In this document: piece after piece, positions 27,070 through 47,357 of the stretch | Layout of the letters: every line of letters begins with the position of its first letter | Position numbering within the stretch: the stretch's first letter is position 1 | Source of the DNA: an uncultured Spirochaetales bacterium | Lineage (GTDB): Bacteria > Spirochaetota > Spirochaetia > Sphaerochaetales > Sphaerochaetaceae | Direction: 5' to 3' | DNA: 47,357 nucleotides | NCBI GenBank assembly: GCA_949293335.1 | Contig: CASFDA010000008.1 | Location: forward strand, 1-47,357 | Notes under the pieces: generated by a model | The model's input: the letters and a program-made list of their open reading frames with translations, nothing else | Databases searched by the model: none | What the model was told of the DNA's origin: nothing | Made by a program: the position numbers and the translations under genes

Positions 27070-28863
27070 ATGAAAAATAAACTTAGATCTTTTCTCCTTT
27101 TCATGATGCTTCTCGTATCGCTCTTTTCATGCAGTGAAGTAAGCGACGAGAGCCTGGCAAAACTGCCTGTAGATGAAAGCGAGAAAACAGCATTGGAGAT
27201 TACAGAAAGAGGATCGACATCGGTCAACGTATCATTTGAATATATATCACGGGCCGAGGAATACAGGATCGAGACGAGAGCAAGCGATGAGAAACTCGCA
27301 TCGCACGATGACGTACTTGTCAATTCCTCGGACTTTTCTGACGGAGTTTTCACAGCATCTGTCAATTCACTCATCCCAGGTTCCACCTACTCTTTCCATC
27401 TTTTTGCGAAGAACAGCGCAATGGACAGTTTCGTAGAAGTGACAGAAGCAAGTGGCACAGAATATACCCTGGAAGAAGGAGTGCCGGAACGTGATCCTTC
27501 TGTTTCAATCACACAGGATAAGGGTATGCTGGCCATCCGGGTGAATGCAGTAAACGGATATGCGTACAAAGCTACTTTAAACAACAGTCAGGGGAATGTC
27601 ATAAAAGCTGGAGACTGGAAATACTTTTATGACGAGAACGGAGGACAACTCCTGCTGCTTGAAGCAGAGACAGAAGAAGACGAAAGCTACACATATATCA
27701 TTGAAAGCGCATACTACACGACCCTCGACCTTACCCATCAGACAGAGGGAGAAGTTTCCCTATCTAACTTTTCAATCGAAAGCGAGACTGACGGGATAAT
27801 AAAAATAACTGGAGAACTACCTTCTGGCACATCAGAGATAGTTCTCTATGACGGGGATGAGGAAATCATAAGAGAGGCCTACCGCAATCAGAGAGAACTT
27901 GCCCTTCCTGATGGTATCGGAAGCCTGAGGACCATGTCGCTGTCACTTTCTGCGTTAAATCAGGATGGCAATCTCATTGCATCCTCCCTGCCAATCACAT
28001 ATACGACAGGACTTGAAATTGAGAGCACAGAGGCGACACAGCAGCACATCAGGATAAACGTAGATCTCAGAGATACCGACTACAGCTTCTACTACAGCCT
28101 CGATAATGGGAATGAGGAACAGATCAGTTATGACAGTTCTGCCAATGCTTTCATAATATCCGGCCTTGAGAGCCTGACTGAATATGAAGTGACTATTCTG
28201 GCAAAGAAAGCCGGGAAAACAGTCGCATCTGATACGGCCACTGAAACAACCACGACATTCAAAGGGTTTTACTCCTGGACAAATGAGACAGAGAAAACAG
28301 ATGACAACTACCAGTCGAATTTTGTGGTCGAAGTTGTGGAAGCGCCTGCTGAGTCCTCGTTCAAGTATTATGTACTGACACATCAGGATGACAATCTCTG
28401 CAAGGAGTATGCGGACACTGTCGGCCTCAGGATCTCACCTCTGATGGAAGATAACGAGTCACTCCCTGATTCTGTCACATACCCTTCCGATGAGGCCGGA
28501 GCAATGAAAAATGCTGGAAATCCGAACTACCTTAGAGCTTATGTATGGAACAACTTGAAATGGAACTCCTCAACAAGCAAGCCAGATACGTTCAATAACA
28601 TTACGGCAAGCATAAGCGGAGACAAGGTGACCGCAACTGCGGACTCGACTGCACTTGGTGTCACCCTGACAACAACTACAGAATTTGAATTCATAGAAGA
28701 AGATGGAGAGACAAAACTGAAATTCTTCAACAAGATAACTGGAAACAACGGCGGTCTTTTTGGTGGGATTGCACAAGGCATTGCAAACAACGCTCTTAGA
28801 AAGAACCCTGATCCTGGGACTGCTGTCGATGGAGAATACACATTCTATCTGGAGATGAGATGA
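27070..28863 (+). CDS. Fibronectin type III-like lipoprotein (597 residues)
   Basis: The signal peptide ends LLVSLFSC (lipid on Cys21). FN3-like domains follow: ALEITERGSTSVNVSFEYISRAEEYRI and further segments such as LEIESTEATQQHIRINVDLRD...LESLTEYEVTILAKKAG. After about residue 400 a different domain begins (FKGFYSWTNETEKTDDNYQSNFV), ending DGEYTFYLEMR. I do not recognise that C-terminal domain. The in-frame ATG at 27031 would put 13 polar residues before the signal peptide, so ATG 27070 is preferred. Its TGA overlaps the ATG of the barrel gene (ATGATGA), so the two are coupled. A surface role is inferred from the lipobox and FN3 domains. Confidence 0.8.
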   Translation: MKNKLRSFLLFMMLLVSLFSCSEVSDESLAKLPVDESEKTALEITERGSTSVNVSFEYISRAEEYRIETRASDEKLASHDDVLVNSSDFSDGVFTASVNSLIPGSTYSFHLFAKNSAMDSFVEVTEASGTEYTLEEGVPERDPSVSITQDKGMLAIRVNAVNGYAYKATLNNSQGNVIKAGDWKYFYDENGGQLLLLEAETEEDESYTYIIESAYYTTLDLTHQTEGEVSLSNFSIESETDGIIKITGELPSGTSEIVLYDGDEEIIREAYRNQRELALPDGIGSLRTMSLSLSALNQDGNLIASSLPITYTTGLEIESTEATQQHIRINVDLRDTDYSFYYSLDNGNEEQISYDSSANAFIISGLESLTEYEVTILAKKAGKTVASDTATETTTTFKGFYSWTNETEKTDDNYQSNFVVEVVEAPAESSFKYYVLTHQDDNLCKEYADTVGLRISPLMEDNESLPDSVTYPSDEAGAMKNAGNPNYLRAYVWNNLKWNSSTSKPDTFNNITASISGDKVTATADSTALGVTLTTTTEFEFIEEDGETKLKFFNKITGNNGGLFGGIAQGIANNALRKNPDPGTAVDGEYTFYLEMR

Positions 28864-30113
28864 TGAAGAGACTACTCATAATATTCCTTATACTGATAAT
28901 TGCAGTCACGACACTCTCTGCAGATATCGCACTAACATACGACAGCGCAGATGACCGATATTTTGACTCCCCTGCCCGTCTCGTCGAGATTGAAGAGAAG
29001 ACTCCATTTGCATTCATGCTGGATCTTGATAGCGATATCGACACGCTGAGGTTCTTCTCAAACCCGACAGGTACACTTGAAGAAAGCGCACTTGCTCTTG
29101 CTTCTTTCCTCAAAAGTCAGGATCTTTCCTTCTGGGAGAACAACATTGCCCTCATCGGTGTCTTCTCATCCCTTTCGGCGAACTTCCCTAGCGACGTGAC
29201 GAGTCCAACTTTCATGGCTGCAGTAGACGATTACTTCTCATCAGAGTTCCTTTCAGATGAATATGGCGATAGCCGGAGAGCCTGGGCAGTTGCGAATTCA
29301 CTTGATCTGATCAGTGCCTATCAGAATCCATCATCAATCCTCGGAGGAAGACTCGATATGGGGCTCAGCCTCTACGGAGGAGAAGTAAAGAATGGTTTCG
29401 GATGGGACTATCAGGTGAACTTCAATTACAACAACTCGGATTCACTGCTCTCTTCATTCAGGAACCGGATTTCAATAGATGCAAGGTCGAATCTAGGTTA
29501 TGCATTCCACATTGGATCTGAGAAATTCGCTTTTGGCTTCGCGTTCCAGCCTCAGCTGAGATTCGAGACCGAATTCACGAACGGGGAATTGCTTAGCGCG
29601 AGACTCAGTGATTCATTCATAGACCTTATCGCAAACAACAACCTGAATTTCGGCTTCGGCCTCGGACTCAACCTTGGATTTCTCTATCGGCAGAGTCCTG
29701 AATGGTCTTTCACCCTTGACCTGAGGGACGTGCCAACTTTCCAGACATTCTTCTATCTGATCCCGTCAGAACTGCTCACTTCCCCTCAGATGCACAGGGA
29801 TGACACGTTCTATTTCCTGGCACCCGACGTGGCTCTCTCAGTCCTCTGGGAGAGGGACAGATACCATGTGAACATAGAGCTGAGTGACATCGTAAATCAA
29901 GTGATATGGCATGCAACAACATCATATTCATTTGACTATTTCTCGATCCTGAAACTCAGATTCAAGTATGATCTTGATTCTGACCTTTCTCTGATTGCGA
30001 AGTACGAGTACAGGGCAATTGCATTTGCCGTCTCATGGCGCGAGCTCTATGCAGAAATATCCACCCGTCTTGACAGGGGTGCAGTCGGGATGAAACTGGG
30101 TTACAGATTCTGA
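28860..30113 (+). CDS. Predicted outer-membrane beta-barrel protein (417 residues)
   Basis: A signal peptide (MMKRLLIIFLILIIAVTTLSA) precedes a mature protein whose first third is helical (SALALASFLKSQDLSFWENN). The remainder is amphipathic strands with Gly and aromatic girdles (GGRLDMGLSLYGGE, NLNFGFGLGLNLGFLY, YHVNIELSDIVNQVIW), ending LGYRF with the terminal Phe recognised by the BAM complex. It is coupled to the upstream FN3 lipoprotein gene by overlapping start and stop codons, so the two may form one surface complex. Family not recognised. Confidence 0.72.
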   Translation: MMKRLLIIFLILIIAVTTLSADIALTYDSADDRYFDSPARLVEIEEKTPFAFMLDLDSDIDTLRFFSNPTGTLEESALALASFLKSQDLSFWENNIALIGVFSSLSANFPSDVTSPTFMAAVDDYFSSEFLSDEYGDSRRAWAVANSLDLISAYQNPSSILGGRLDMGLSLYGGEVKNGFGWDYQVNFNYNNSDSLLSSFRNRISIDARSNLGYAFHIGSEKFAFGFAFQPQLRFETEFTNGELLSARLSDSFIDLIANNNLNFGFGLGLNLGFLYRQSPEWSFTLDLRDVPTFQTFFYLIPSELLTSPQMHRDDTFYFLAPDVALSVLWERDRYHVNIELSDIVNQVIWHATTSYSFDYFSILKLRFKYDLDSDLSLIAKYEYRAIAFAVSWRELYAEISTRLDRGAVGMKLGYRF

Positions 30114-30198
30114 AAAAGAGAAATCAGAATACTTCTCTTCCAGCTTCTGGCCGCAAAAGAAGAGTTGTAGAATGCATCTGAAAAAGGTGAATTTTTCC

Positions 30199-30244
30199 TT
30201 GACAAGTCGGGATACTTGATGCTTATCCCGACTTACTATACAAT
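30199..30244 (+). promoter_or_regulatory. Promoter and palindromic operator of the FN3 lipoprotein operon
   Basis: TTGATG (30216-30221), a 17-base spacer and TACAAT (30239-30244) form a good promoter. Its -35 lies inside the loop of a perfect 11-bp inverted repeat AAGTCGGGATA-N9-TATCCCGACTT (30204-30234). A bound dimer would cover the -35. A second TTGACA (30199-30204) overlaps the left arm but has no good -10. The predicted start near 30251 leaves a leader of about 55 bases. Confidence 0.55.
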
Positions 30245-30305
30245 TCGGGTGAAATTTGTATAGAAACACAAAGGGGAGTGACTTAAAAAAGCCACAATTG
30301 AATAG

Positions 30306-33300
30306 ATGATAAAAAGGATATTATCCATCCTGACGATATCCCTCCTGCTAATTTCATGTCCTACTGCTCCACCTCTGGATCCGACAGATCAGTATGAAGC
30401 CTATATGACGCCAAGCGCTCCTGAGAGTGTGAATGCGACAAACGGATATGATGATACGATCACTCTTTCGTGGGCGGATGTTGAAAATGCCACCAGCTAT
30501 CAGGTATGGGGAATTGAAAGCGTGAACTATGGAGCTGAGAGCTCTTCATCCACTGTGAGTGAAAGCTATGGGACACTGCTTGAAAGAGGGTTTCATTTCC
30601 TTGAGGACACCAATCTGACAACTTACACTCTCGATGCGACGTCGGGGACATCGTATGTATTCTCGGTTGTTGCATTGCGGAATATCGGGTCTAGCGCTAC
30701 AGACAGTTCAAAGACACTGCTCTATTCCAATCCGAGCTCATATGTGGAAGGTTCTACAGCCGGTGATGTGCGCATTTCGGGAATTGCAAACTCCAATTCC
30801 GCGATCCTATACTGGTCAGTAGATGGAATTGAGAGCGTCCTTTCAGAGACAAATCTCTACAGTCCTGTCTTCACCGTCGACTACAAGCAGTCAACAGAGA
30901 GCGAATGGAAAGAAGGCACGATAGCAGAAACTGGGAACTCGACTACAGAGAATTTCTATGCCCAGCTGATGGCATCAAGCAACAATCTCATCCCGAACAC
31001 AAATTACGACTTCAGAGTCAATATGATTGTATATGGAAGCGCGGGAAACGAGATTGCAAGAAGAACGAGCGAGACATTCACTATCCTCACAGATGTGAAC
31101 TTGGTTCCTGAGAACATCACAGACATCAGTGCAACTACAAACATTCCGGATGCAATCGAGATATCTTTCACAGCCCCTGCTGTCTCCGCAAGCGATATGC
31201 AGAGTTATTTCAGGCTGGAAAGAGGAGTGACAAAATCATCTTTCGAGACGATCGTGGAAGGAAATGCAGATATATTCACTGAAAGCAGTGGAGTATACAC
31301 ATACAGGGATACCACGGCAGAAGTGAATACAGAGTACTACTACAGAGTCATCAACGGCTTTGAAAACGAGAATGGCAATGTCATATGGCAGAGCGATACA
31401 GAATCAAGCACGCTTTCAAATGTTGCATACCGCACCTGGAGAGCGGAGAACGCCTCTATAGAGATCACAAACACAACAAGCGATGAAGACAATATTCCGC
31501 TCAGCCGCGATCTCACACTCACATTCGAATACGGAAAAGAGATCACGGAAGATATCACATTCTCGCTGACAAAGAACAACTGGAGCGAAGAGAGCAACAA
31601 GACCGTAGTAAGTACGGAAGAGATTCCGAAGGACAGTCTGGTCGATCTTGGAAACGGGAAGTACAGTTATTCATATTCTGTAAGTACGCTTGATCAGAAC
31701 ACATATCAGACATTCACATTTGACCTGAACACGCTGCAGAACGGAAGTACCATAAATACAGTATCTGCCACATCAGACCTTATCGATCTTGGAAGGAGCA
31801 CGGCGATTTCATTCATCTCTTCATTCAGCGCGTCTGACAACTATGCTGGAAAAGTTCTCCTCTCATGGACTGTTCCAGATGGTACAGAGAATGAGAATTA
31901 CACATTCTACATCGATGAGAATGAAGTCACAGATGAGATCAGCGTCACAAGCTCAGGCACGGAGAGAAGCGTTTTCATCACAGCAGAAGACCAGGATGAG
32001 CACGAATACAGGATCTTGATCGAAGCGGAACTTGAGAATGTGAGAGGTCGCCAGTACTATCCATATCCTGCATATGGAAAGACACTCTCTGTTCCATCGG
32101 GACTCTCCGCAAGCGACGGGGAGAGCATCGAAGGAATAAACATAACGTTCACCGGTACAGATGATCCTGAAGTCATCTATAACGTCGAATATTCAGAAAA
32201 TGGCTCGACATGGGAAACTCTCGGAGAGAAAAATGAAAAAGAGTTCTTCCTTGAGGCAAAAGGAACATCTGAAGACGGCAAGGAAATAAGTTTCCGCGTG
32301 CGGGCGAGGAACACAAACGACACAGCTTACACAGAGTGGAGTGACTTGGAGACAGGTTCTGTATTCGGTCCGGGAGCGATGAATCTCCAGGCAAGTTATG
32401 AGACAAGCGGAGAAGCGATCACGCTTACCTGGGAGAGCGTCGAAGGAGCTGATTCCTACCGCATCGCGAGAAACGGCGTTGTCATCAGAAACAATGTAAG
32501 GAACGCAACCGAATACAGCGATTCTGATTTCCTCACTTCAACGACACTGGTAGATGGCGTGGAACCGCTTGCTGCTGAATATACCTACAATGTCATCCCA
32601 TTGAAGGAAGTAGATGGAGAAGAGATAGCATCAAAAACCGCGGCAGAGACTGTCGGCAAGCTGTATTCCCCTCCTGTTGACGTGACAGTCAGCAAAGGAG
32701 AGTACGCAAATTACGTGCATCTTGAATGGACTGACAGCAATGCTTACTCCGATGGCAACACATATTACATCATCAAGCGCTACAACCTTGATGAAAGCGG
32801 GAATGAGACAGATGTGACCACATTCACAAGGACGATGAGCACAGTCTTTGATGACACAAGGCCTTCCGGCAAGGCCTACTATACTGTAATGGCCCAGACA
32901 GGAGATCTCACTTCATGCTATCAGAACACATTCTCAGATGTGGACAACATCTTCGGAGAAACAGAAGATGGAAATCTCGGATACGAGCTCGGGAATGTCG
33001 GCGCCCCTGTCATCATGAGCGTAGTAGAAAATGACGGCTATCTCGCTCCGTATGTCCAGCTGACATGGGAACACGTGGACGGCGCGACTTCATACGATAT
33101 AATTGCGAATATAAGCAACCCAGGCTCCGAAGCATCGGAAATCACGAACAATGTTGATGTAAGCAACCTGCCCTACGATAATCCAAACAGTGACGGCCTT
33201 GTCACAACGGGAACAGAAGGGGAACCTGGTTATCTCTCATACAATCCGGAGACAAATCAATACACATATAATGACAACAGTGGAATGATGAGGACGACAA

Positions 33301-33905
33301 CTGCCATATCCTCCTACTCCCTCGCGGCAAGAAACGGCACAGAGAGTTCTGATGTTGCTCTCACAAGGTCAACCACATACAGATCGCCTAGAACAGACGA
33401 GTACGTCTCGATGGCGAATGAAATGATATATTCAGGACTGCACTGGGTAGATGATCAGAGAAGTGGAGACTGGATCAACTATGACTCATGGATTGGAGCG
33501 AGTGATGTAACCCTCAATTATCCAGATAGTGAAAATCCGACACTTACTGCTGTAATACCAACAGACATCAATCTAGTTTCAGTAGAATTAACAGGATCAG
33601 CATCTTTCTCTTCCTATGTCATCAGTGATCGCCCAATGACAATTACCAATGGATATTTCGGGACAAATTCTTCAGGAAGGCCACAGGACACAAACCCGCT
33701 GAGCGAACTTCAAAATGGCTCAGTCTCAATCTCGTTTGATCCAGTCACGATACAAACAGGAGAGACAGGAAACATAAGAGCAGCAGAGATCACATACCAG
33801 ACAATTAACGTCCATAGCTCTCCATATGGAATCAACTACAGCGTTAATGTCGACGGCACTACTTCACCCGTCACAGACAGCTCAGACATTTCGAGGATCT
33901 TCTAG
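30306..33905 (+). CDS. Giant fibronectin type III lipoprotein (1199 residues)
   Basis: The signal peptide MIKRILSILTISLLLISC lipidates Cys18. About nine FN3-like domains follow, recognisable by a repeated ITLSW/VHLEW/VQLTW strand and a Y-x-(V/I) strand: for example DTITLSWADVENATSYQVW, AITLTWESVEGADSYRIAR, VHLEWTDSNAYSDGNTYYI and VQLTWEHVDGATSYDI. The last 180 residues, from about YVSMANEMIYSGLHWVDDQ, are a different beta-rich domain that resembles the end of the next protein in layout. A ribosome-binding site is not clear before the ATG. First gene of a tightly packed six-gene run; probably surface-exposed. Confidence 0.85.
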   Translation: MIKRILSILTISLLLISCPTAPPLDPTDQYEAYMTPSAPESVNATNGYDDTITLSWADVENATSYQVWGIESVNYGAESSSSTVSESYGTLLERGFHFLEDTNLTTYTLDATSGTSYVFSVVALRNIGSSATDSSKTLLYSNPSSYVEGSTAGDVRISGIANSNSAILYWSVDGIESVLSETNLYSPVFTVDYKQSTESEWKEGTIAETGNSTTENFYAQLMASSNNLIPNTNYDFRVNMIVYGSAGNEIARRTSETFTILTDVNLVPENITDISATTNIPDAIEISFTAPAVSASDMQSYFRLERGVTKSSFETIVEGNADIFTESSGVYTYRDTTAEVNTEYYYRVINGFENENGNVIWQSDTESSTLSNVAYRTWRAENASIEITNTTSDEDNIPLSRDLTLTFEYGKEITEDITFSLTKNNWSEESNKTVVSTEEIPKDSLVDLGNGKYSYSYSVSTLDQNTYQTFTFDLNTLQNGSTINTVSATSDLIDLGRSTAISFISSFSASDNYAGKVLLSWTVPDGTENENYTFYIDENEVTDEISVTSSGTERSVFITAEDQDEHEYRILIEAELENVRGRQYYPYPAYGKTLSVPSGLSASDGESIEGINITFTGTDDPEVIYNVEYSENGSTWETLGEKNEKEFFLEAKGTSEDGKEISFRVRARNTNDTAYTEWSDLETGSVFGPGAMNLQASYETSGEAITLTWESVEGADSYRIARNGVVIRNNVRNATEYSDSDFLTSTTLVDGVEPLAAEYTYNVIPLKEVDGEEIASKTAAETVGKLYSPPVDVTVSKGEYANYVHLEWTDSNAYSDGNTYYIIKRYNLDESGNETDVTTFTRTMSTVFDDTRPSGKAYYTVMAQTGDLTSCYQNTFSDVDNIFGETEDGNLGYELGNVGAPVIMSVVENDGYLAPYVQLTWEHVDGATSYDIIANISNPGSEASEITNNVDVSNLPYDNPNSDGLVTTGTEGEPGYLSYNPETNQYTYNDNSGMMRTTTAISSYSLAARNGTESSDVALTRSTTYRSPRTDEYVSMANEMIYSGLHWVDDQRSGDWINYDSWIGASDVTLNYPDSENPTLTAVIPTDINLVSVELTGSASFSSYVISDRPMTITNGYFGTNSSGRPQDTNPLSELQNGSVSISFDPVTIQTGETGNIRAAEITYQTINVHSSPYGINYSVNVDGTTSPVTDSSDISRIF

Positions 33906-33914
33906 GAGGAAAGC

Positions 33915-36131
33915 ATGAAGAAAATACTGATTTTGATATCCACAGCCCTGATCCTCCTTTCTTTCTCCTCATGCAACTGGGACGTATGGGGAGGTGAATT
34001 CACAGATTATGGAGAAGGTTCTGCCGGAGCTAACGCATCTACTCTCTTCACAGGTGCAAAGCCAGAAGAGATCAGTGTCACGAAGTCTCGTTTCTCAGAT
34101 GAGATAAGGATCGCATGGAACAGTGTGCGCGGAGCAGACTACTATGAGATATTCAAGACTGAATATACTGAAGGAGATGACATTGAAAATCTCACGACCT
34201 GGCAGCGTCTTACAGATACAGCCATCAACTCGACAAGCTACTCGGACTACAATGTGGTGGCTGGAACAAGATATGCCTATCGTGTCAGAGCACGCTCATT
34301 CACCTATCGCGATGTCATTGGTGCATATTCAGATATCGGGACAGGCTGGACGCTGACACCACCGCTTGAAGTCGAAGCCTCCCAGGCCGAGAGCACAACC
34401 TCAATCACTGTCTCCTGGGAAGGGGTTGCATCTGTCCAAGGCTATAAAGTCTACTGGAGCCCGACGGGATATGACGGAACATGGGAAGCCACACAGTCTT
34501 CAGCTGTTCCCAGTACAGCACGCAGCCTCACATTCTCCCCTACCTCACAGTATTACGGGCAGACTCTCTACTTTCATGTGACATCGATAGCACGTGGAAA
34601 CATCGAGAGTGAACCAAGCGTGACAAGACAGGGATACACATATGTGGAAGGTGCACCACAGAGTCCGGAGAATCTTTCGACAAACAGCGGAGAGAGTACA
34701 GAGGAGATCACGCTTTCCTGGACGGCAATGTACCCGAACGAGGGAAACTATGACTGGATCATCTACAGACGTGCTGGAAACGAAAGCGAAAGGGCCATCT
34801 ACTCGACCCAGGCAGGCGACGACCAGCCAGAAGTCATCGATGGAATGATGACGTATACAGATACAACGGCATCAGGACTCACTCCGGGAGTAAGGTACAC
34901 ATACACAGTGATGGCAATCGGAAAGATCACAAGTGAGGACGGCTCAGGCACACAGACAGTAAACGGAATGCCAAGCACGACAACCGGATACCTGCTTTCA
35001 CCTCCGACAGAGATAAGCGAGAAGAGGATCAACGATACGACAGACGGCTTTGTATTCACGTTCCTCGCTCCTCTTGGCGATGACGGGACAAGGAATCTCA
35101 CTTATAACGTATACGGAAAAGCAACAGCAAACGGCTCTTTCTCTCAAGACCCAATCTATTCAGCTTCTCTTGATGGAAGTGAGAGCTATACATTTGAAAT
35201 CAAATACTCTGGCGACGGAGACAATGAATACTTTGACATCAGAGTACGGAACGGGAGTACAGAAAGTGTCGGATATGCAAGCCTTTACGGAAACCTCACG
35301 GTTCCAAGGCCAATAAAGGTTCGCGGCTATTCGGCAAGTGACAATACATACACAGATGCGATGAGCATAGTTGACGGACAGTATCAGGTACTCCTGCAGA
35401 TGGATGTGGATTCAAATGCCGACAATTACACGGTCAAAGTGTGGAAAACAAATCCTTCAAGCGCATCAGAGGATGCAGATTTCTCATATGAGATTGTTCC
35501 TACAACCTCTTCAGATGCAGGGTCAAACCAGATACTGATCGATCATGAGGCAAATCCTGCAGTCGGAGAGACCTACTACTACGCAGTGAGGGGAACAGAC
35601 AAGCTTGGAAGGACTGGAGAATGGAGCGACATAGATTCAGGTTACCCTGCGATCACAGGTGAAGAGCTTGTACGGCACATGCAGGTATTCGGCCTGAAGC
35701 CATGGGAGTTCATTGACACAGAGATGCTGGGACCTGATCTTTCTGACAAGTGGAGGAACAGTGCTATCTACGGGTATATAAGTCAGGCTGGAATGGGAAG
35801 TCTCGGAAGCGCAGCAGAAAATGGTGAGGCATCCGGACGTATCACCTACAATGCGTCCTACTCCCCTCCTGCATCAGGAAGCGTCTCATTCAATTACACG
35901 AACTTCGGAGAGAAGGACTACCTATATATCAACGGCAGTTACAACATGAACGTCAGCATGTCGGGAGATGGAAGCGCGTCAGGTGGATTCACTGTCGGAG
36001 GAATGTATCCAACGACAATAGGGCTCACCAACATTTATGTCACGGGACAGAAATTCGCAGGAACATATACTGTCACACAATCGAACGGGTCTGCATCTCA
36101 AGAGATAGACCCAAACCCGGAGGTACAGTAA
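33915..36131 (+). CDS. Fibronectin type III lipoprotein (738 residues)
   Basis: The signal peptide ends LILLSFSSC (lipid on Cys20). About five FN3-like domains follow (EIRIAWNSVRGADYYEIF, SITVSWEGVASVQGYKVYW, EITLSWTAMYPNEGNYDWIIY and others). Like the 1199-residue protein, it ends in a distinct C-terminal domain opening with VRHMQVFGLKPWEFID. That domain continues as short Ser/Gly/Asn/Tyr-rich strands (SVSFNYTNFGEKDYLYINGSY). GGAGG lies 5 bases before the ATG, 9 bases after the previous stop. Its TAA overlaps the next ATG (TAATG). Confidence 0.85.
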   Translation: MKKILILISTALILLSFSSCNWDVWGGEFTDYGEGSAGANASTLFTGAKPEEISVTKSRFSDEIRIAWNSVRGADYYEIFKTEYTEGDDIENLTTWQRLTDTAINSTSYSDYNVVAGTRYAYRVRARSFTYRDVIGAYSDIGTGWTLTPPLEVEASQAESTTSITVSWEGVASVQGYKVYWSPTGYDGTWEATQSSAVPSTARSLTFSPTSQYYGQTLYFHVTSIARGNIESEPSVTRQGYTYVEGAPQSPENLSTNSGESTEEITLSWTAMYPNEGNYDWIIYRRAGNESERAIYSTQAGDDQPEVIDGMMTYTDTTASGLTPGVRYTYTVMAIGKITSEDGSGTQTVNGMPSTTTGYLLSPPTEISEKRINDTTDGFVFTFLAPLGDDGTRNLTYNVYGKATANGSFSQDPIYSASLDGSESYTFEIKYSGDGDNEYFDIRVRNGSTESVGYASLYGNLTVPRPIKVRGYSASDNTYTDAMSIVDGQYQVLLQMDVDSNADNYTVKVWKTNPSSASEDADFSYEIVPTTSSDAGSNQILIDHEANPAVGETYYYAVRGTDKLGRTGEWSDIDSGYPAITGEELVRHMQVFGLKPWEFIDTEMLGPDLSDKWRNSAIYGYISQAGMGSLGSAAENGEASGRITYNASYSPPASGSVSFNYTNFGEKDYLYINGSYNMNVSMSGDGSASGGFTVGGMYPTTIGLTNIYVTGQKFAGTYTVTQSNGSASQEIDPNPEVQ

Positions 36132-36616
36132 TGAAGAAGATATTGATTATCCCATTGTTGCTGCTATCCCTCTTTTCTTGTGACATGTCTGAGATCCCGA
36201 ACCCACTCCACGGGACTTATGTCCTGAGGGAAGAAGGCACTAGTGGATTCTATAGCGCTATGTTCTCCTTCGCCTCCGATGGTACATTCCGTTACATCGA
36301 GATTGTTGAGAAAGAGATAAAGATCGCGATGGAAGGAACTTATAGTTACAATCTCTCGTTCTTCGATTTCGAGAGAGCGAATGGAAGGATAGACATCACG
36401 CTGATCTACCCGGACGAGATTCTGACAAGCGGCATACAGAACCTCATCATAAACCATGGAAGCACTTCTTTCCTTTTCGACTGGGAGGCTGACAAGAACA
36501 CAGGACCCAAGACCCTTACTCTTGTCGTGAGCACGACAGACAGGAATCAGAACTATGAACTCTACTATTACGGGAACGCAGACAAGATCCTGAGTGAAAT
36601 GGAGGACGCGATATGA
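36131..36616 (+). CDS. Small lipoprotein (161 residues)
   Basis: The signal peptide MKKILIIPLLLLSLFSC lipidates Cys17. The mature part is one small beta-rich domain: GTYVLREEG...FYSAMFSFASDGTFRYIEI...GTYSYNLSFFDFERANGRIDITL. The pattern recalls lipocalin-like 'GTY...G.Y' lipoproteins. It overlaps the genes on both sides (TAATG upstream, ATGA downstream), so expression is tied to the operon. Family not recognised. Confidence 0.75.
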   Translation: MKKILIIPLLLLSLFSCDMSEIPNPLHGTYVLREEGTSGFYSAMFSFASDGTFRYIEIVEKEIKIAMEGTYSYNLSFFDFERANGRIDITLIYPDEILTSGIQNLIINHGSTSFLFDWEADKNTGPKTLTLVVSTTDRNQNYELYYYGNADKILSEMEDAI

Positions 36617-37293
36617 AGAAAATACTTTTCCTCATTCTTGTTTTGACAGCTCTCCTCTTTCCACTCTTTTCTGCGGAAGAGGCTGTGAGTGCAGAAGACA
36701 TCAGATCCGCCACAGATCTTGAACTCAGCGATGAGACAATGGCGCTGCTGATGGAGCGGCTTAGAAGCGAAGGAATAGTTCCCCAGGCAGAACAGAGATC
36801 ATGGTGGCAGAGGGAAGTTGATGATATCGGTGTCAGCTATGACTTCTACCTGAGAGCTCCGGTTACCTACAACACGAGCACGATCGGAATAGGCGGAGGG
36901 TTCAATATCGGGCTCAAGACCAGATCGTTCAAGTTCGAAGCATACGTCCTCGGCGATTATTATCTCACCCCGCACGGGAGCAATGGCGGAGTACAGTCCC
37001 TGGATTTCATGATCGAAAGTGGAATCATGTTCGGCTGGAAAATACTGGATGTCTGGATCACAAAGACCTACATCACTCTAGATGTTGGCTACTTCATGCA
37101 ATTCGCGTCCCTTCCTGGAACTCCGAATGTGATATTCCTTGCAGAAAACGGCGTGATGCTGAGACCAAAAGTAATGACTGAATTCACATTCAACAAATAC
37201 TACGATATGGCTATCGGCATCTTCTATCAGATTCCTGTATATCCGAACTATGAAGGATACCGGGGCTTTGGAGTAATGGTTTCCCTTTGTTAA
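36613..37293 (+). CDS. Predicted outer-membrane beta-barrel protein (226 residues)
   Basis: A signal peptide (MKKILFLILVLTALLFPLFSA) is followed by a short acidic helical region (AEDIRSATDLELSDETMALLMERLRSEG) that could be periplasmic. The rest is amphipathic strands with Gly/aromatic content (YDFYLRAPVTYNTSTIGIGGGFNIGL, FKFEAYVLGDYYL, MAIGIFYQIPVYP). It ends FGVMVSLC, not in Phe. The ATG overlaps the previous stop (ATGA). As the only barrel candidate in the six-gene run, it could be the export or anchoring partner of the lipoproteins around it. Confidence 0.7.
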   Translation: MKKILFLILVLTALLFPLFSAEEAVSAEDIRSATDLELSDETMALLMERLRSEGIVPQAEQRSWWQREVDDIGVSYDFYLRAPVTYNTSTIGIGGGFNIGLKTRSFKFEAYVLGDYYLTPHGSNGGVQSLDFMIESGIMFGWKILDVWITKTYITLDVGYFMQFASLPGTPNVIFLAENGVMLRPKVMTEFTFNKYYDMAIGIFYQIPVYPNYEGYRGFGVMVSLC

Positions 37294-37303
37294 AAGGAGG
37301 AAT

Positions 37304-38131
37304 ATGAAAAAACTTGCTATTCTTCTCATTTCATTACTCCTCTTCTCTTGCAGCACAGATTCTTCACCAAGTCAGATATCGAAAGAGACAACGTTCACAT
37401 TCTCGTTTTCAGGAGACGAAAAATGTGACAGAGTTCTTATCGGAGATGAAGAGGCATTGCTATCAGAAAGTGGAAGTGTGACCATTGAAGGGGCAACAGG
37501 AGATCCTCTCCTATTCCTCTTCTTCAAGGATGAGAGGGTATTTGCACTTCTTGAAGTCTCTTCATATACAACAGGAAGCGAGAACAGCTACGAAATTGAC
37601 ACCTCGCAATTTCAAGTGAACATCATAGATGCATATGAGGCAGGCGGAACAGTATATATTTCCTGGGATGAAGTAATGTATGCCGATGAATATGAGATTA
37701 CATATGAGGGCAATGAATACTTTACCAGCGCAACTGAATTCGAAATTGCGGGAAGCGCAGGTAACAGCATCTCTGTCACACCAGTATTCAATTCCCATCT
37801 GGGACTGTCCAGCACAACAGAGATCAGAGAGGGAAGAAACGACATAGAGATCATCGTAAAGCCGCTTCCAGATGAACTCGGAATAGAAATCACAGCAGAG
37901 GACAAGATCCTCGAATATGGCGGAAAAATCACTTTCTCCACGAACGTATCAAAAGATGAATATACGATCACCTGGATGCTCAACGGAAAGATTATCGGAC
38001 ATGAAGAGAGTGTGGATATATATTACGACGAGGAGGCCCTTTTTCTCACAGGAGAGGAAGAGTCCCTCATGCTCATCCTTGTTAAGGATACAAACGTATA
38101 CTCGAAAACTTTAACTTTCGTGATAAATTGA
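37304..38131 (+). CDS. Lipoprotein with Ig/FN3-like domains (275 residues)
   Basis: The signal peptide MKKLAILLISLLLFSC lipidates Cys16. The mature protein is beta-rich. One domain is FN3-like (VNIIDAYEAGGTVYISWDEVMYADEYEITY), followed by a PKD/Ig-like C-terminal part (LEYGGKITFSTNV...YTITWMLNGKIIGHEESVDIYYD). AAGGAGG lies 5 bases before the ATG, 10 bases after the barrel gene. The C-terminal segment TWMLNG also resembles a piece of the 985-residue lipoprotein that follows (YQWLLNG), suggesting related modules. Confidence 0.78.
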   Translation: MKKLAILLISLLLFSCSTDSSPSQISKETTFTFSFSGDEKCDRVLIGDEEALLSESGSVTIEGATGDPLLFLFFKDERVFALLEVSSYTTGSENSYEIDTSQFQVNIIDAYEAGGTVYISWDEVMYADEYEITYEGNEYFTSATEFEIAGSAGNSISVTPVFNSHLGLSSTTEIREGRNDIEIIVKPLPDELGIEITAEDKILEYGGKITFSTNVSKDEYTITWMLNGKIIGHEESVDIYYDEEALFLTGEEESLMLILVKDTNVYSKTLTFVIN

Positions 38132-38145
38132 CGGGGTTTAGAAAC

Positions 38146-41103
38146 ATGAAGAGATTAACAGCAGTTTCATTGATTCTCCTGGCCCTTGCCCTGATATTCT
38201 CCTGCTCTACAGAGCCAGAGGATATTACAGAGAGAGCTGATCTGGAGATCACTACATCAGAAGTGAAGACAAGAACGATCCTGCCTGTCACTCCTGACAT
38301 CACTAGCTACACAGTTACTCTGACAGGACCCGAAACGCACACCCAGACATTCTCACCTTCAGATCCTATCCAGTTTTCAGGAATTCTTGTCGGAAGCTAC
38401 ACCATCAAAGTCGAAGGGAAGACAGAAGATGGCACAATTGTCGCAGAAGGAAGCGAATCTGTCACAGTAAGCGCATCAGGTCCGAACTCCGCTGTGATAT
38501 ACCTTTCATACCTTACAAGCGGTACGGGGACCATGGTCATTGATATCTCATGGGAAGAAAGGACTACAGGCTCAGGACCATTTGATGAAGCACTGGAACA
38601 TAAGAAACTCAGCTTCCAGGCAATGAATAACGAAACAGGCGAAGCATATGGCCCTCTGTTAGAAGTAGGCGAAGATGACTTTGCAGCAAAGAAGCTTACA
38701 TATGTGGCAGAAGGCCTTCAGCCTTCAGACGGAACCACGATCTATTTTGATATCTACACCGAAGTCGCAGGAAAGCCTCAGGTGATCGCACGCACCTTCT
38801 ATACAGTCGTCCAGATCATCCCGAACCTTACGTCCATGCCGGATTCAAATGAAACTAACAACTTCAAGATAACTGATGAGAGCATCATCCAGTACATCAA
38901 GAACGTCAGGAAATCATCGGTCAAGGCAATTATAAATGAGGAGAACCCCGACAGTGCAATCGACATCGAGTGGGAATACCCGAAGCTATCAAACGGCAAC
39001 TTCAATGCAACATTGACAGTCTCCTTATACAAAGAAGGGGATGATAGCCTTATTGACGAAGAAAAGTTCGAATACAACAACGGAACTGACAGAACTTGTA
39101 CCTGGACCATTGGTGGTGGAGTAAATGATATAGAACTTTCCCCAGATGATTCCTACTACGTCACATTCCAGAACACAAGTGAAACGGGTTACTCCCAAGT
39201 CCTTACAGCCCTTACTGGAATAAAGACGAAGGTAACTGTAACGGGTATAGACATCACATCTGAGGTACAAGAGTATTACACGATGGGTGATATTCTCAAA
39301 GTGGATGCTACCATCACACCAGAAGATGCGACTGATAAGGATTACACGATTTCTGTTATGAACTCAGAGGACGTTACAATCAATCAGGAGGCAAAGACAG
39401 TTACGTTCAACAGTTCTGGCGATTACACGATAACAGTCACCCCTACTGACATTTCAGCAAGCGTCTCAGCTACAGCAAATACGTATGTAAAACTCAGTAT
39501 TCCAGAGAATTTCAGCGCAAACCTCACAGAGGAAGGGATTTCCCTCTCTTGGACCGAGGTCTCCAGCGCAGATGGATATGTTATCGAGAAGACTGTCCCA
39601 GATGTGGGAAATTCACAAATAGAAGCCAACGACGAGAATACTACTAGTGACGGGGATACCATCACATATGTGGATACTCAGGTATATGCCGGCAAGACGC
39701 ATACATACACGATCAAGGCTATCAGAAATGATAATGAGAAGTACAATTCACTCCCGAGTTCTGAAGCCTCAGTTTCAGTCAAATCCACAGACATCGAGAT
39801 CATCAATCCTCCTGATATCACAACACAGGAACTTCCTGAAATCGATTTCGGAAATCAGTATCTCGTCGAAGGCGCATCATCAGATGCGGAACACTACAGC
39901 ATCTCAATTTCACTGAACGCAGCAATAGAGGGAGCCACAAACTATCAATGGCTACTGAACGGTGTGAGTATCGCCAACTCTGCTACTTTCTCTTCGGAAG
40001 TACAGAACGTCACCATCAAGGCAGATACGGAAGGACTCGATTTCTCACGTTTATATGAGACAGAAAATACTCTCGAGCTCATCGTGACTGTTGGCGGCAA
40101 GCCGTACAATACTTCTGGAACGTTCTATGTAGTCAACACTGATCTTACAAATATAAAAATCACAAATCCCTCGGATAGTAATCAAGTGACACTTGGCACA
40201 CCATTGCAGTTAGGAGTCAATTTCACCCCTTCTGTCGAAGACTCCGAGAATGCCCCGAGTATTGTTTGGACAGTGTCATCCGGAGGAGAGGGAGTGGTTG
40301 AACTATCTGGAAAGGGACTTGTCACGGCAATCGATGACGGAGAAGTTACAATCCGTGCGACAGCTATTGCAACAGGAAAATACGATGAAATCACTTTGAA
40401 GACATATATTCCTGCAGAATACATCGAGATACAGAATACGACAGGAAGAGATTTCATGTTCATGAGAAAAAATGGAGTCACAGTCACAGAAGAAAGTGGC
40501 TTTGATTCAGTTTCCCTCTCTGCTGTTGCAAAGAGAAACGATGGTAAGACTATCAGTGAAGAGGCAAGAGCAATCACCTGGTCAATCCCGGAGGGAACAT
40601 CAAATCTCACCCTCTCCTCAATATCAGGAGAGACCACTACAGCCAAGAGCGTCGACAGCACATCAGGAGGAGATATCGTCATAACAGCAACGAACATCGA
40701 TGGTATAGAAGCAACGAAAACTGTCCATGTACATGATATGGATATTTATATCAAGAGGGACTCAGCTAGTGATTTTACTAAAGTGACAGGGGGAACATAC
40801 CAAACATATGCTTTAGCTTCTGATCGAACATACAACATGAAAGTGGCATATTCATGTGGCTCGGAAGGAGCATTTGATAAGAACACTTCTAACAACCTGA
40901 GTATAAATTGGTGTTTTGATGAAAGTGGAACACAAGTGGGATCTCCTGGGTTTTATGTGACTATCGAAAATCCAACCTCAAGTGATTCCGAATTCTATGC
41001 AACATTGCAAAGAGATGGATCTACACTAAATACTTCAGACGTAACAGCCATTGTTAATTATGGCAACCAACAGGCAGCCATTGTTAGGTTTACTACAAAT
41101 TAG
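38146..41103 (+). CDS. Large Ig-like/FN3 lipoprotein (985 residues)
   Basis: The signal peptide MKRLTAVSLILLALALIFSC lipidates Cys20. An N-terminal beta region (TSYTVTLTGPETHTQTFSPSD, SGILVGSYTIKVEG) recalls lipoproteins with a repeated carboxypeptidase-regulatory-like fold. An FN3-like domain lies near the middle (ISLSWTEVSSADGYVIE), then at least one BIG2-type domain (PSIVWTVSSGGEGVVELSGKGLVTAIDDGEVTI) and a second partly similar one. I chose ATG 38146 over the TTG at 38128, which has no site and would lengthen the signal peptide. It lies 14 bases after the previous stop, and a terminator follows. Confidence 0.83.
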   Translation: MKRLTAVSLILLALALIFSCSTEPEDITERADLEITTSEVKTRTILPVTPDITSYTVTLTGPETHTQTFSPSDPIQFSGILVGSYTIKVEGKTEDGTIVAEGSESVTVSASGPNSAVIYLSYLTSGTGTMVIDISWEERTTGSGPFDEALEHKKLSFQAMNNETGEAYGPLLEVGEDDFAAKKLTYVAEGLQPSDGTTIYFDIYTEVAGKPQVIARTFYTVVQIIPNLTSMPDSNETNNFKITDESIIQYIKNVRKSSVKAIINEENPDSAIDIEWEYPKLSNGNFNATLTVSLYKEGDDSLIDEEKFEYNNGTDRTCTWTIGGGVNDIELSPDDSYYVTFQNTSETGYSQVLTALTGIKTKVTVTGIDITSEVQEYYTMGDILKVDATITPEDATDKDYTISVMNSEDVTINQEAKTVTFNSSGDYTITVTPTDISASVSATANTYVKLSIPENFSANLTEEGISLSWTEVSSADGYVIEKTVPDVGNSQIEANDENTTSDGDTITYVDTQVYAGKTHTYTIKAIRNDNEKYNSLPSSEASVSVKSTDIEIINPPDITTQELPEIDFGNQYLVEGASSDAEHYSISISLNAAIEGATNYQWLLNGVSIANSATFSSEVQNVTIKADTEGLDFSRLYETENTLELIVTVGGKPYNTSGTFYVVNTDLTNIKITNPSDSNQVTLGTPLQLGVNFTPSVEDSENAPSIVWTVSSGGEGVVELSGKGLVTAIDDGEVTIRATAIATGKYDEITLKTYIPAEYIEIQNTTGRDFMFMRKNGVTVTEESGFDSVSLSAVAKRNDGKTISEEARAITWSIPEGTSNLTLSSISGETTTAKSVDSTSGGDIVITATNIDGIEATKTVHVHDMDIYIKRDSASDFTKVTGGTYQTYALASDRTYNMKVAYSCGSEGAFDKNTSNNLSINWCFDESGTQVGSPGFYVTIENPTSSDSEFYATLQRDGSTLNTSDVTAIVNYGNQQAAIVRFTTN

Positions 41104-41111
41104 TGTTTGAT

Positions 41112-41146
41112 TATGCGCAAGGATCTAAAGCCTTGCGCATATTTTC
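41112..41146 (+). terminator. Intrinsic terminator of the FN3 lipoprotein operon
   Basis: TATGCGCAAGG (41112-41122) pairs perfectly with CCTTGCGCATA (41131-41141), followed by TTTTCT. It lies 9 bases after the stop of the 985-residue lipoprotein gene and marks the operon end. Confidence 0.88.
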
Positions 41147-41176
41147 TCACCAATTCAACCCAGATACAAAATTAAA

Positions 41177-41185
41177 TGTTATAAT
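41177..41185 (+). promoter_or_regulatory. Extended -10 promoter of the 41210 barrel gene
   Basis: TGTTATAAT (41177-41185) is a perfect extended -10. A conventional -35 is absent. It lies after the operon terminator and 24 bases before ATG 41210, with TGGAGAA as ribosome-binding site. Confidence 0.6.
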
Positions 41186-41209
41186 CAAAACCCAAATGGA
41201 GAAAACCAA

Positions 41210-41773
41210 ATGAGAAGAGCATTTATCATACTTCTAGTACTGTTAGCCATACCTGTTACACTTTTCGCAGACAATGCATACTTCTCTGTCACCTCCGGCC
41301 TGATAACCCCTGTCACATCGTTCTCTTCCACTAATGACGGAAGCAACTTCACCGAGAGGCATCCGGAAGTGCGGTTTTCTCCTGCATACACTGGTGATGT
41401 GTCGATCGGATACGAGTACAACAAGTATTTCGGATTAGGTGCGACACTGAGAGCAGACTACATACCTGCAGGAAATGCTTATCGTCTAATAGTTCCACTC
41501 TATCTGGATATCAGGGCAAATCCGAGTTGGGGAATCATCTCTTTTCCAATAACATTCTCAGTTGGCGGACATATGGACATAGAAGACGGGAATTTCAAGT
41601 TCGGACCTTCCGCTGCGATCTCACTTGCAGCAGAAATCCTTTGCAGCAAAAATCTTTCATTCTTCTTCAGGACTTTCGTCGAGCTCCACATGGGCTTTGG
41701 AAATGATATTTCAGACATGCGCTATGATCTCTTCACAGCTCCTGTGACAGCAGGCATAACCTACAGGTTCTGA
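41210..41773 (+). CDS. Small outer-membrane beta-barrel protein (187 residues)
   Basis: A signal peptide (MRRAFIILLVLLAIPVTLFA) is followed by regularly spaced amphipathic strands: YFSVTSGLITPVTSF, GDVSIGYEYNKYFGLGATLRADY, YRLIVPLYLDIRA, FKFGPSAAISLAAEIL and LSFFFRTFVELHMGFG. It ends AGITYRF with a terminal Phe, the standard signal for BAM insertion. An eight-stranded barrel fits the length. It has its own promoter and a ribosome-binding site GGAG. Its stop TGA abuts the stop of the convergent gene (TGATCA). Function unknown. Confidence 0.8.
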   Translation: MRRAFIILLVLLAIPVTLFADNAYFSVTSGLITPVTSFSSTNDGSNFTERHPEVRFSPAYTGDVSIGYEYNKYFGLGATLRADYIPAGNAYRLIVPLYLDIRANPSWGIISFPITFSVGGHMDIEDGNFKFGPSAAISLAAEILCSKNLSFFFRTFVELHMGFGNDISDMRYDLFTAPVTAGITYRF

Positions 41774-42568
41774 TCAGGAAAAGACCTCGCGGAAGCTCTC
41801 GTAATTGTTGTCATACCGTCCTTCAGGAATTGCGAAGATGATATTCCTGAAGACATTAGCGAAAGATTCATGGATCACTTTCTTGAAAATCGATGCCACA
41901 GCAACTGGATCGTTCCCAAATACACCGCAACCCCATGCACCGAGTATGAGATCCTTCTTTTTCTCCTCTGCAGCAACAGCAAGAATGCGGAAAATCCTCT
42001 TTTCAAGCATTTTCTCAAGTTCAGGGCCGGACAAAGAAAATCTCCTCTTGTTAGGAGCAGGAGAAGAAAGCACAGATGTCATGACTGGATTAGGAAGGAA
42101 ATCATGGTTGCTGTTCCTGAAGAAAAAGACATATGGGGAAAAAAGAAGATATTCGAGGTAGAACTTTCCACCATTCCTCCTGTTCTCGCTATACATCACA
42201 CGGGCATTTTGACTGCCGATAGAAAGGTAAAGTGTACTTGCTCTTGAAATAGCCTCTTCCTGTGCTCTTGCACCAGAGAGGAATCCCCCTCCTGGATTGA
42301 CTGCAGAAGCGAAATTAAGCACTAGAGAGTCTAGTGTATCAGGAAGGGATAATAGAGCACTGACAGTGTCCTTTGCACTAACTTTTACCTCGCATCTTTC
42401 GCCTGAAGGAATCACAACCCGACATTCATCCCATGACGGGCTATAGACTTTCACCTCTTCTGCTTTTTTCCGATCAAATGAAATAGTTCTTCCTGAATAG
42501 CTGTAACACCCCGAGGACATTACACGATAGCTCTCTTCAGCAATAGATCTCAAATCTTCTTTTCCCAT
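41774..42568 (-). CDS. Microbial-type poly(ADP-ribose) glycohydrolase-like protein (TIGR02452/DUF2263)
   Basis: The 264-residue protein has the family's macrodomain-type signature. NFASAVNPGGGFLSGARAQEEAISRAS contains the PARG GGG...QEE pair, whose Glu residues are catalytic in characterised members. LILGAWGCGVFGNDP is the phosphate/ribose loop. Members remove ADP-ribose from proteins or nucleic acid. I chose ATG 42568, since AGGAGA lies 7 bases upstream. Longer upstream sequence overlaps the phosphatase gene. It starts one base after the phosphatase stop, so the two are coupled. Confidence 0.88.
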   Translation of the reverse strand: MGKEDLRSIAEESYRVMSSGCYSYSGRTISFDRKKAEEVKVYSPSWDECRVVIPSGERCEVKVSAKDTVSALLSLPDTLDSLVLNFASAVNPGGGFLSGARAQEEAISRASTLYLSIGSQNARVMYSENRRNGGKFYLEYLLFSPYVFFFRNSNHDFLPNPVMTSVLSSPAPNKRRFSLSGPELEKMLEKRIFRILAVAAEEKKKDLILGAWGCGVFGNDPVAVASIFKKVIHESFANVFRNIIFAIPEGRYDNNYESFREVFS

Positions 42569-42569
42569 C

Positions 42570-43319
42570 TCAATCTCTCCTGAAAGGAAGTATACGCTTA
42601 TCTTCTTTGCCAGACTGCCAGTACTCGAATGTGTCCATATCCATGATTGTAATGCATCCCGATGGAAGGAAAGAACCTGTGTCGACATCGATCACGTGAA
42701 ATGATGAAGAAAAGAACGGACCGGAAAGCGGTGTATGTCCGACATAGAGAGTATGGCCAGAAAAATCTATAGCACTCTCTTTTCCGATGGCATTATCTTC
42801 AAAATACTTTGCTTTCCTTACATACATCCTATCCCAGAGGATGTCATCTGCAAATCTGCACTCCCTCTGCATCCGGGCAGGAAGATCAGACAACTCGAGA
42901 ACCTTCTCATAGTCAAGGTATTCCGGAATTCCGCCATGGACTATTACCTCGTTATCAAGAACGCGGACAACTGGTATTCTCTCCAGTTTCTCCTTCATCT
43001 CCCGCATTTCTTCCTTTTGTACGTTTTTTCTCCGGAAGTCCCCGACTGTTTCCATTCCTCCATTGTAGAAATACCAGAGATCCTCAATAGTTCCATCATC
43101 AAGATAAGAAAGAAGATACTTGTCATGGTTGCCGAGAACAGGGAAGAAATTCGCAAGGGAAAGGAGAAAGCGCAGGACAGAGACACTCTCTTCTCCTCGG
43201 TCTGCCAGATCTCCAGTGGAGAAAAGAATATCATTCTCAGGATTGAATGACGCTCTTTCCAAAACATCCATCATTTCTCTGTACATGCCATGGATGTCCC
43301 CTATGATCAGACGTCGCAT
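42570..43319 (-). CDS. PPP-family metallophosphatase (PrpE/ApaH-like)
   Basis: The 249-residue protein carries the PPP metallophosphatase motifs in order: GDIHG (8-12), GDLADRGEE (36-44), GNHDKYLLSYL (63-73), VHGGIP, and GHTPLSGP near the C-terminus. These bind two metal ions. The group includes protein Ser/Thr phosphatases and dinucleoside tetraphosphatases; the substrate is not clear. Its ATG overlaps the end of the HAD gene by 13 bases, and its end abuts the PARG-like gene, so the three form one operon. Confidence 0.88.
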   Translation of the reverse strand: MRRLIIGDIHGMYREMMDVLERASFNPENDILFSTGDLADRGEESVSVLRFLLSLANFFPVLGNHDKYLLSYLDDGTIEDLWYFYNGGMETVGDFRRKNVQKEEMREMKEKLERIPVVRVLDNEVIVHGGIPEYLDYEKVLELSDLPARMQRECRFADDILWDRMYVRKAKYFEDNAIGKESAIDFSGHTLYVGHTPLSGPFFSSSFHVIDVDTGSFLPSGCITIMDMDTFEYWQSGKEDKRILPFRRD

Positions 43320-46353: not shown

Positions 46354-47357
46354 ATGGATAAAAAGGCACGTATTGAGAAGAACAGCAGCATCAGGAAAAG
46401 CATCAGAGAAACCCTCACTCGTCATGCGTCGATGCGTCCACTCTGTGTGGAGCTGAAACTCGATCTGAAGTGCCTGAACAGGGTGGAACGGGAGAAGCTC
46501 TGGCACTACTTCACACAGTGCCGCTGGCTGTGCAATTACCTCATCTCCCTTGACGCTGATGCATTCAAGTCTTTCGATACAAAAACAAGGGACATCACAT
46601 CCCTCGATAAGGAAGGCAACCCAGTCGAGCGCCAGCTCACCATGCCAGCCAAGTTCATCCAGTCGGTGTATTCGTCACTCAAGCGTGACATGGCCGCTCT
46701 TGCAGCGAAACGCGGGAAGACGGGAAAGAAGAACGGCAAGCTGAAGTTCAGAAGTGAGTACAATGCGATAGAACTCAACCAGTACAGGGATACGCACTGG
46801 ATCTGCCATGGTCCAGAGGGCGACAAGAATGGCAAATACAAGAACACCTTCCACATCTCAGGCATCAAGCGGCCCATAAGGGTGTTCGGGATGGACCAGA
46901 TTCCCCTTGATGCCGAATTCGCCAATGCGAAGCTCTTGAAAAGGTCGTCAGGGATATACCTGATGCTCACTTGCTACATCCCGAAGCATGAGGGGAATGC
47001 GAAGCGTGAGGACAAGCCTGACATCGGCCTCGACTTCGGCATCAAGACCACCATAACGACCTCCGAAGGTGAGAAGTTCGACATAACAGTCCGAGAACCG
47101 GAACGCCTCAAGGGCCTGCAGAAGAAGCTTGCCCGCCAAATCAAGGGTTCCAGGGGCTGGCATGACACGAGGCATCTCATCAGGAGGGAGTACGAGAGGC
47201 TCGCCAACAGGCGGCGAGCAAAAGCCAATCAGATATATCATGACATCGTCACGGGAAGGAAGCTCATCGTCATGCAGGATGAGAACATCAGGGGATGGCA
47301 TAAAGGGCTCTTTGGGAAACAGGTGCAGAACTCCGCACTCGGCACACTGAAGAGCAA
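46354..47357 (+). CDS. tnpB: TnpB-like RNA-guided nuclease of an IS200/IS605-type element (3'-truncated by window)
   Basis: The frame opens at ATG 46354 and stays open to the window end (334 codons). It shows the TnpB order: an N-terminal WED/REC-type part (FTQCRWLCNYLISLDADAF, MPAKFIQSVYSSLKRDMAALAAKRG) and the RuvC-I block DIGLDFGIKTTITT with catalytic Asp227. The bridge-helix/lid follows (LKGLQKKLARQIKGSRGW, NRRRAKANQIYHDIV), then RuvC-II IVMQDENIRGW with Glu310. The zinc ribbon, RuvC-III Asp and right end lie beyond the window. No tnpA transposase is present upstream, so it is a lone-tnpB type. A TAAAAT lies 5 bases before the ATG. Confidence 0.88.
   Translation, partial: MDKKARIEKNSSIRKSIRETLTRHASMRPLCVELKLDLKCLNRVEREKLWHYFTQCRWLCNYLISLDADAFKSFDTKTRDITSLDKEGNPVERQLTMPAKFIQSVYSSLKRDMAALAAKRGKTGKKNGKLKFRSEYNAIELNQYRDTHWICHGPEGDKNGKYKNTFHISGIKRPIRVFGMDQIPLDAEFANAKLLKRSSGIYLMLTCYIPKHEGNAKREDKPDIGLDFGIKTTITTSEGEKFDITVREPERLKGLQKKLARQIKGSRGWHDTRHLIRREYERLANRRRAKANQIYHDIVTGRKLIVMQDENIRGWHKGLFGKQVQNSALGTLKS

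What the first reader, a model, noticed from the sequence alone, without database searches (positions are those of the whole stretch)
27070..41773. FN3/Ig lipoprotein and beta-barrel locus of unknown function
Seen: nine envelope genes in a row on one strand, namely lipoproteins of 597, 1199, 738, 161, 275 and 985 residues plus barrel candidates of 417, 226 and 187 residues. Six of them (30306-41103) are packed with overlaps or gaps of at most 14 bases, have one promoter and one terminator, and contain at least 15 FN3-like domains between them. Known: lipoboxes and FN3/BIG2 domains mark surface or periplasmic proteins. Inference: a multi-protein surface structure, adhesin or polymer-capture system, with the barrel proteins as export or anchoring partners. 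I know of no described system with this composition.
Basis: partly seen in the sequence, partly recalled or inferred. Interest (0 to 1): 0.65.

Follow-up and report, generated by a model that had tools for sequence, protein, structure and literature searches.

The report
Conserved four-gene spirochaete envelope cassette
Inside this stretch lies a four-gene set, kept in the same order in at least 50 genomes of two spirochaete families, that should build an outer-membrane complex of two long rod-like lipoproteins, a small lipoprotein and a small membrane barrel; nothing matching it turned up in the libraries and papers searched, and what it does is not known.

Summary
The nine genes are real and their sizes and spacing are as stated, but they are not one unit. 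Comparative genomics splits them into a conserved core, C-D-E-F (30306-37293: 1199-, 738- and 161-residue lipoproteins plus a 226-residue barrel), and accessory modules: A-B, G-H, and the single gene I. Loci chosen by the barrel alone carry C and D beside it in 32 of 35 cases, while the flanking genes differ. Loci of a second family (the treponemes), chosen by D alone, carry C in 18/18, E in 16/18 and a barrel-like gene in 17/18. A-B and G-H often lie elsewhere. F models as an 8-stranded OmpA/NspA-type barrel (Z 17), so an anchor or small barrel rather than an exporter. D ends in a domain found in no library searched, confidently modelled (pLDDT 91.5), present in five spirochaete families and also as stand-alone secreted proteins. 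C and D are paralogous FN3 rods. Most likely the cassette makes an outer-membrane lipoprotein-barrel complex that presents binding domains on rods. Assembly is inferred from synteny; surface exposure and ligand are untested. The window lies in a gut-type Sphaerochaetaceae genome that lacks penicillin-binding transpeptidases and FliG.

The parts
30306..33905 (+). Gene C, 1199-aa lipoprotein, at least 7 FN3-like domains plus a C-terminal domain; core
   Evidence: FN3 count; orthologues in two families; lipobox
33915..36131 (+). Gene D, 738-aa lipoprotein, 4-5 FN3-like domains plus the D C-terminal domain; paralogue of C; core
35628..36131 (+). D C-terminal domain (residues 572-738), helices plus 8 antiparallel strands, no library family, also found as a stand-alone secreted protein in treponemes
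   Evidence: AF2 pLDDT 91.5; class-wide search; stand-alone copies; no PDB match with E<=1e-3
36131..36616 (+). Gene E, 161-aa small lipoprotein, perhaps lipocalin-like; core
   Evidence: weak DUF5640 in one treponeme homologue
36613..37293 (+). Gene F, 226-aa 8-stranded outer-membrane barrel with a variable N-terminal extension; core
   Evidence: AF2 model; OmpA/NspA fold; family
37304..38131 (+). Gene G, 275-aa lipoprotein; accessory module with H
38146..41103 (+). Gene H, 985-aa lipoprotein with Big_2 and one FN3-like domain; accessory module
41112..41141 (+). Terminator-like hairpin (11 pairs, T tail) closing the packed run
27070..28863 (+). Gene A, 597-aa FN3 lipoprotein; independent pair with B
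28860..30113 (+). Gene B, 417-aa barrel-like protein; independent pair with A
41210..41773 (+). Gene I, 187-aa barrel candidate, weakly like the TP0733 family; seen beside the core in only one other locus (L033)

Best explanation
C-D-E-F is a conserved spirochaete operon that makes one outer-membrane-associated complex. F is an 8-stranded barrel in the outer membrane. C, D and E are lipid-anchored next to it. C and D are paralogous rods of FN3-like domains that hold their C-terminal domains away from the membrane, and E is a small (perhaps lipocalin-like) accessory lipoprotein. I think it most likely works as a surface capture or attachment device for gut-living spirochaetes, with the D C-terminal domain as binding head and F as anchor and organiser. 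Shown: the gene set, its order, lipoboxes, FN3 content, F's predicted fold, and D's C-terminal domain as an independently used domain. Inferred: that the four proteins form a complex. Guessed: surface orientation and ligand binding.
For: In 32 of 35 loci found by F alone, C and D sit beside it on the same strand with median gaps of 9 (C-D), -1 (D-E) and -4 (E-F) bases, while neighbours differ. The order repeats in a second family found by D alone: C 18/18, E 16/18, barrel-like gene 17/18 of 18 loci, with three more loci. Profile comparison links C with C' and E with E'; D-type C-terminal domains match at 98.9%. F adopts the NspA/OmpA/OprF fold (Z 17.3, 149 residues, rmsd 2.5). The treponeme gene in F's place has the same enrichment of amphipathic strand windows (0.095 against 0.025 shuffled). 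The D C-terminal domain occurs alone in secreted proteins, as expected of a self-contained functional domain.
Against: No interaction was tested. F and its treponeme counterpart are not shown to be homologous (84.7% by hhalign, largely over the signal peptide). Family f70 has C-D-E without a barrel next to it, so the barrel is not indispensable. Many genomes of the family lack the cassette (F in 45 of 139, 32 of 75 good-quality). In T. pallidum lipoproteins are mostly periplasmic (PMC7521688 abstract), so surface exposure cannot be assumed. No carbohydrate-binding or known adhesin domain was found.
Confidence: 0.4

Rival explanations
1. C-D-E-F forms a periplasmic or envelope scaffold: FN3 rods anchored in the outer membrane span the periplasm and stiffen the envelope, with F as the outer-membrane node.
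For: The window's genome, 99% complete, has no penicillin-binding transpeptidase and no FliG, like Sphaerochaeta and Bullifex, which lack PBPs and are coccoid (PMC7738495), so a protein scaffold could be useful. FN3 rods suit spacing roles. Treponemal lipoproteins are mostly periplasmic.
Against: Only 45 of 139 genomes in the same family have F. The cassette also occurs in family f3, which contains Treponema, so it does not track loss of the wall.
Confidence: 0.2
2. The cassette binds and carries a small or lipidic ligand at the outer membrane: E and the D C-terminal domain are calycin-like binding barrels and F is the membrane partner.
For: E is weakly DUF5640-like in one homologue. The D domain is a helix plus 8-strand meander whose best weak structural neighbours include DUF3224, nitrobindin and ORP lipid-binding domains.
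Against: All those matches have Z below 6, a level the tool warns is common by chance. Long FN3 rods are not needed for a transporter.
Confidence: 0.15
3. Four independent envelope proteins that are merely co-transcribed.
For: No interaction data. The barrel is absent beside C-D-E in family f70.
Against: Order and tight spacing are kept across two families while the flanks change, and the paralogues C and D are kept as a pair.
Confidence: 0.2
4. One reading: the whole nine-gene (or six-gene) run is one surface structure.
For: The same run A-B-C-D-E-F-G-H-I exists in one close relative (L033). C-D-E-F-G-H exists in L034 and L035.
Against: A-B and G-H are absent from, inverted at, or remote from most C-D-E-F loci.
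Confidence: 0.05

Closest known systems
8-stranded outer-membrane barrels (NspA, OmpA, OprF, OmpW/OprG; in Treponema pallidum TP0126, TP0479, TP0698, TP0733, PMC8407342)
   Same: F: signal peptide, eight antiparallel strands, closes as an OmpA-type barrel
   Different: No sequence family match; variable N-terminal extension; operon with FN3 lipoproteins
Surface lipoproteins with FN3/Ig or Big_2 arrays (e.g. Leptospira LigA/LigB)
   Same: Spirochaete lipoproteins built of beta-sandwich arrays (C, D, A, H)
   Different: LigA/B are Big_2 proteins, not linked to a barrel gene or to a D-type C-terminal domain (from general knowledge)
Lipoprotein-barrel partnerships: RcsF-OmpA (PMC7553776), Slam-dependent surface lipoproteins (PMC5449769), SusCDEF
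   Same: Idea of lipoproteins displayed with the help of, or beside, an outer-membrane barrel
   Different: No Slam, SusC or SusD family matched any of the nine genes; F is far smaller than Slam or SusC
FadL/TraF-like barrels (for B)
   Same: B has many amphipathic strands; one homologue has a weak Toluene_X hit, E 0.015
   Different: No match above any cut-off; not part of the core

Membership tests
Fibronectin type III domain proteins (C, D) | match to the FN3 profile | tested here: met
   D 40.6 bits against cut-off 25; C 23.7, just below it; treponeme C homologue 39.1; repeated domains by a locus-built profile
Bacterial lipoproteins (A, C, D, E, G, H) | signal peptide with lipobox Cys | tested here: met
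   Cys conserved across homologues of A, C, D, E and H; G by ORF scan only
8-stranded OmpA-type outer-membrane barrel (F) | eight antiparallel strands closing as in OmpA/NspA | tested here: met
   AF2 model and fold comparison, Z 17.3 to NspA; location in the membrane not tested
TP0733 family (I) | NF047328 curated cut-off 130 bits | tested here: not met
   25.1 bits, E 9e-6: resemblance only
Lipocalin-like lipoprotein (E) | lipocalin barrel fold | not tested
   only a weak sequence hint (DUF5640 E 0.0013, below cut-off)
FadL/Toluene_X (B) | PF03349 match above cut-off | tested here: not met
   no match for the window's B; E 0.015 in one of 12 homologues
Slam / SusCD-type systems | large SusC- or Slam-type barrel partner | tested here: not met
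   no Pfam or NCBIfam match of that kind in any of the nine genes

The most novel reading that the evidence does not exclude
A spirochaete-specific outer-membrane appendage in which paired FN3-rod lipoproteins tipped with a so far unnamed domain are organised by an 8-stranded barrel, used for attachment or capture in animal guts.
Probability: 0.3. Interest if true: 0.7.

Novelty: new variant of a known kind. Interest (0 to 1): 0.5.

Why it matters
It defines an unnamed, syntenic four-gene envelope cassette and an unnamed domain family across several spirochaete families, probably including culturable treponemes, giving a concrete target for how gut spirochaetes build their poorly known outer surface.

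Tried and rejected
Pfam and NCBIfam for all nine proteins; Pfam alone for the aligned homologues of D (treponeme), B and F: no family for B, E, F or the D C-terminal domain. PDB sequence profiles for F, B and the D C-terminal domain: nothing credible. Foldseek and VIA for the D C-terminal domain: no confident match. Whether C carries the same C-terminal domain as D: only suggestive (82%, 44 columns). F against the treponeme barrel gene: homology not shown. Neighbours of stand-alone D-domain proteins in treponemes: varied housekeeping genes, no functional clue. Literature searches found no described system of this composition. Promoter prediction was uninformative.

Full report
Observation. The nine ORFs are present with the stated sizes, strand and spacing. 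Lipoboxes are confirmed by conservation of the Cys among homologues. FN3 domains are real: Pfam scores D at 40.6 bits and A at 38.2 (cut-off 25) and C at 23.7, just under it; a profile built from the locus finds 7 in C, 4-5 in D, and one each in A, G and H. In the window's genome PF00041 hits occur only in this locus. One strong terminator-like hairpin follows H (41112-41141); promoter matches are at chance level.

Where it lies. The window is a whole contig of a 1.92-Mb, 99%-complete genome. That genome has no penicillin-binding transpeptidase and no FliG. The same family contains a complete 2,227,296-bp genome, which from memory is Parasphaerochaeta (Sphaerochaeta) coccoides (2.23 Mb in PMC3726837), so family f1 is most likely Sphaerochaetaceae. 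Coccoid Sphaerochaeta and Bullifex are reported to lack PBPs (PMC7738495). Family f3 contains a 1,139,633-bp genome (T. pallidum Nichols, from memory) and a 3,055,580-bp single-contig genome carrying the cassette (L087), whose size and 51% GC fit Treponema brennaborense (3.06 Mb, 51.5%, PMC3726837).

Anatomy of the conserved unit. Using the barrel F alone, I found homologues in 45 of 139 genomes of the family and mapped 35 loci with an F gene, including the window. C and D are adjacent to F in 32 of 35, with median gaps of 9, -1 and -4 bases, while the next genes on either side belong to no common family. Using D alone, I found the same cassette in family f3: 18 loci with C 18, E 16 and a barrel-like gene 17, plus three more loci. 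C and D are paralogues over their FN3 arrays (hhalign 99.7%). C and E are linked across families by profile comparison; the D C-terminal domains match at 98.9%. F and its treponeme counterpart are positional equivalents with similar amphipathic-strand content, but homology is not shown. In f70 the run is C-D-E without a barrel next to it; in f10 the parts are rearranged.

Accessory genes. A-B occur together in all 12 mapped loci with a full-length B, but B is found in 47 of 139 genomes, including genomes without a detected F, and often on another contig. G-H sit downstream, inverted beside, or remote from the core. I is shared near the core with one other locus only.

Structure. F models as eight strands (pLDDT 85.7) with the NspA/OmpA fold (Z 17.3, rmsd 2.5 over 149 residues). 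The D C-terminal domain (residues 572-738) is confidently modelled (pLDDT 91.5): N-terminal helices and an eight-strand antiparallel meander. It has no PDB match with E below 0.001, and the best VIA scores (5.6, 5.4) are at the level of common coincidence. It is found in 76 of 395 genomes of the class, in families f1, f3, f8, f10 and f70, and as stand-alone 167-191-aa proteins with plain signal peptides in f3. That identifies it as an independent secreted domain.

Mechanism. The best reading is an outer-membrane complex: barrel F, lipid-anchored E, and two FN3 rods that present C-terminal domains. Gene order and spacing make joint function likely. Complex formation is inferred, and surface orientation and binding are guesses. 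An export role for F is unlikely, because an 8-stranded barrel has no pore for folded protein. A periplasmic scaffold and a ligand carrier are the main rivals.

Comparison. No described system with this composition was found in the libraries or papers searched. The parts belong to known kinds (FN3 lipoproteins, OmpA-type barrel); the combination and the D C-terminal domain are undescribed as far as tested. Hence a new variant of a known kind, of moderate interest.

Noticed in passing
window 16064-18025 (-): 653-aa protein with three Listeria-Bacteroides repeats (PF09479), probably another surface protein.
   Followed up: no
L110:8948-9523, L111:8843-9355, L112:9073-9576, L113, L114, L115: Treponeme-family genomes carry stand-alone secreted copies of the D C-terminal domain outside the cassette, with no common neighbour seen.
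   Followed up: partly
window 38146-38600 (N-terminal ~150 residues of H): This N-terminal module is shared by many other proteins of about 270-780 residues across the whole family, including complete genomes without a detected core.
   Followed up: partly
L065:10290-11450: F homologue with a ~200-residue acidic repeat N-terminus; one member of the F alignment matches the LED repeat family PF20854 at 8.7e-10 (that this is the member is inferred from its sequence).
   Followed up: no
alignments A2, A4, A10: The residue after the lipobox Cys is family-specific: Asn in 26 of 31 D proteins, Asp or Glu in 18 of 25 E proteins of f1 but Tyr in 11 of 13 of f3; possibly a sorting signal.
   Followed up: no
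window 24524-25777 (+): AAA_14/DUF4143 ATPase; relatives lie near several C-D-E-F loci (L047, L050, L054), three of them in L054.
   Followed up: no
window 41774-42688 (-) and 46354-47355 (+): Microbial-type PARG (PF10021) next to the locus, and an IS605 OrfB transposase running off the contig end.
   Followed up: no
L108 (G503): D is split in two ORFs (468 and 194 aa) in a C-D-E locus of family f70: a frameshift or assembly error.
   Followed up: no
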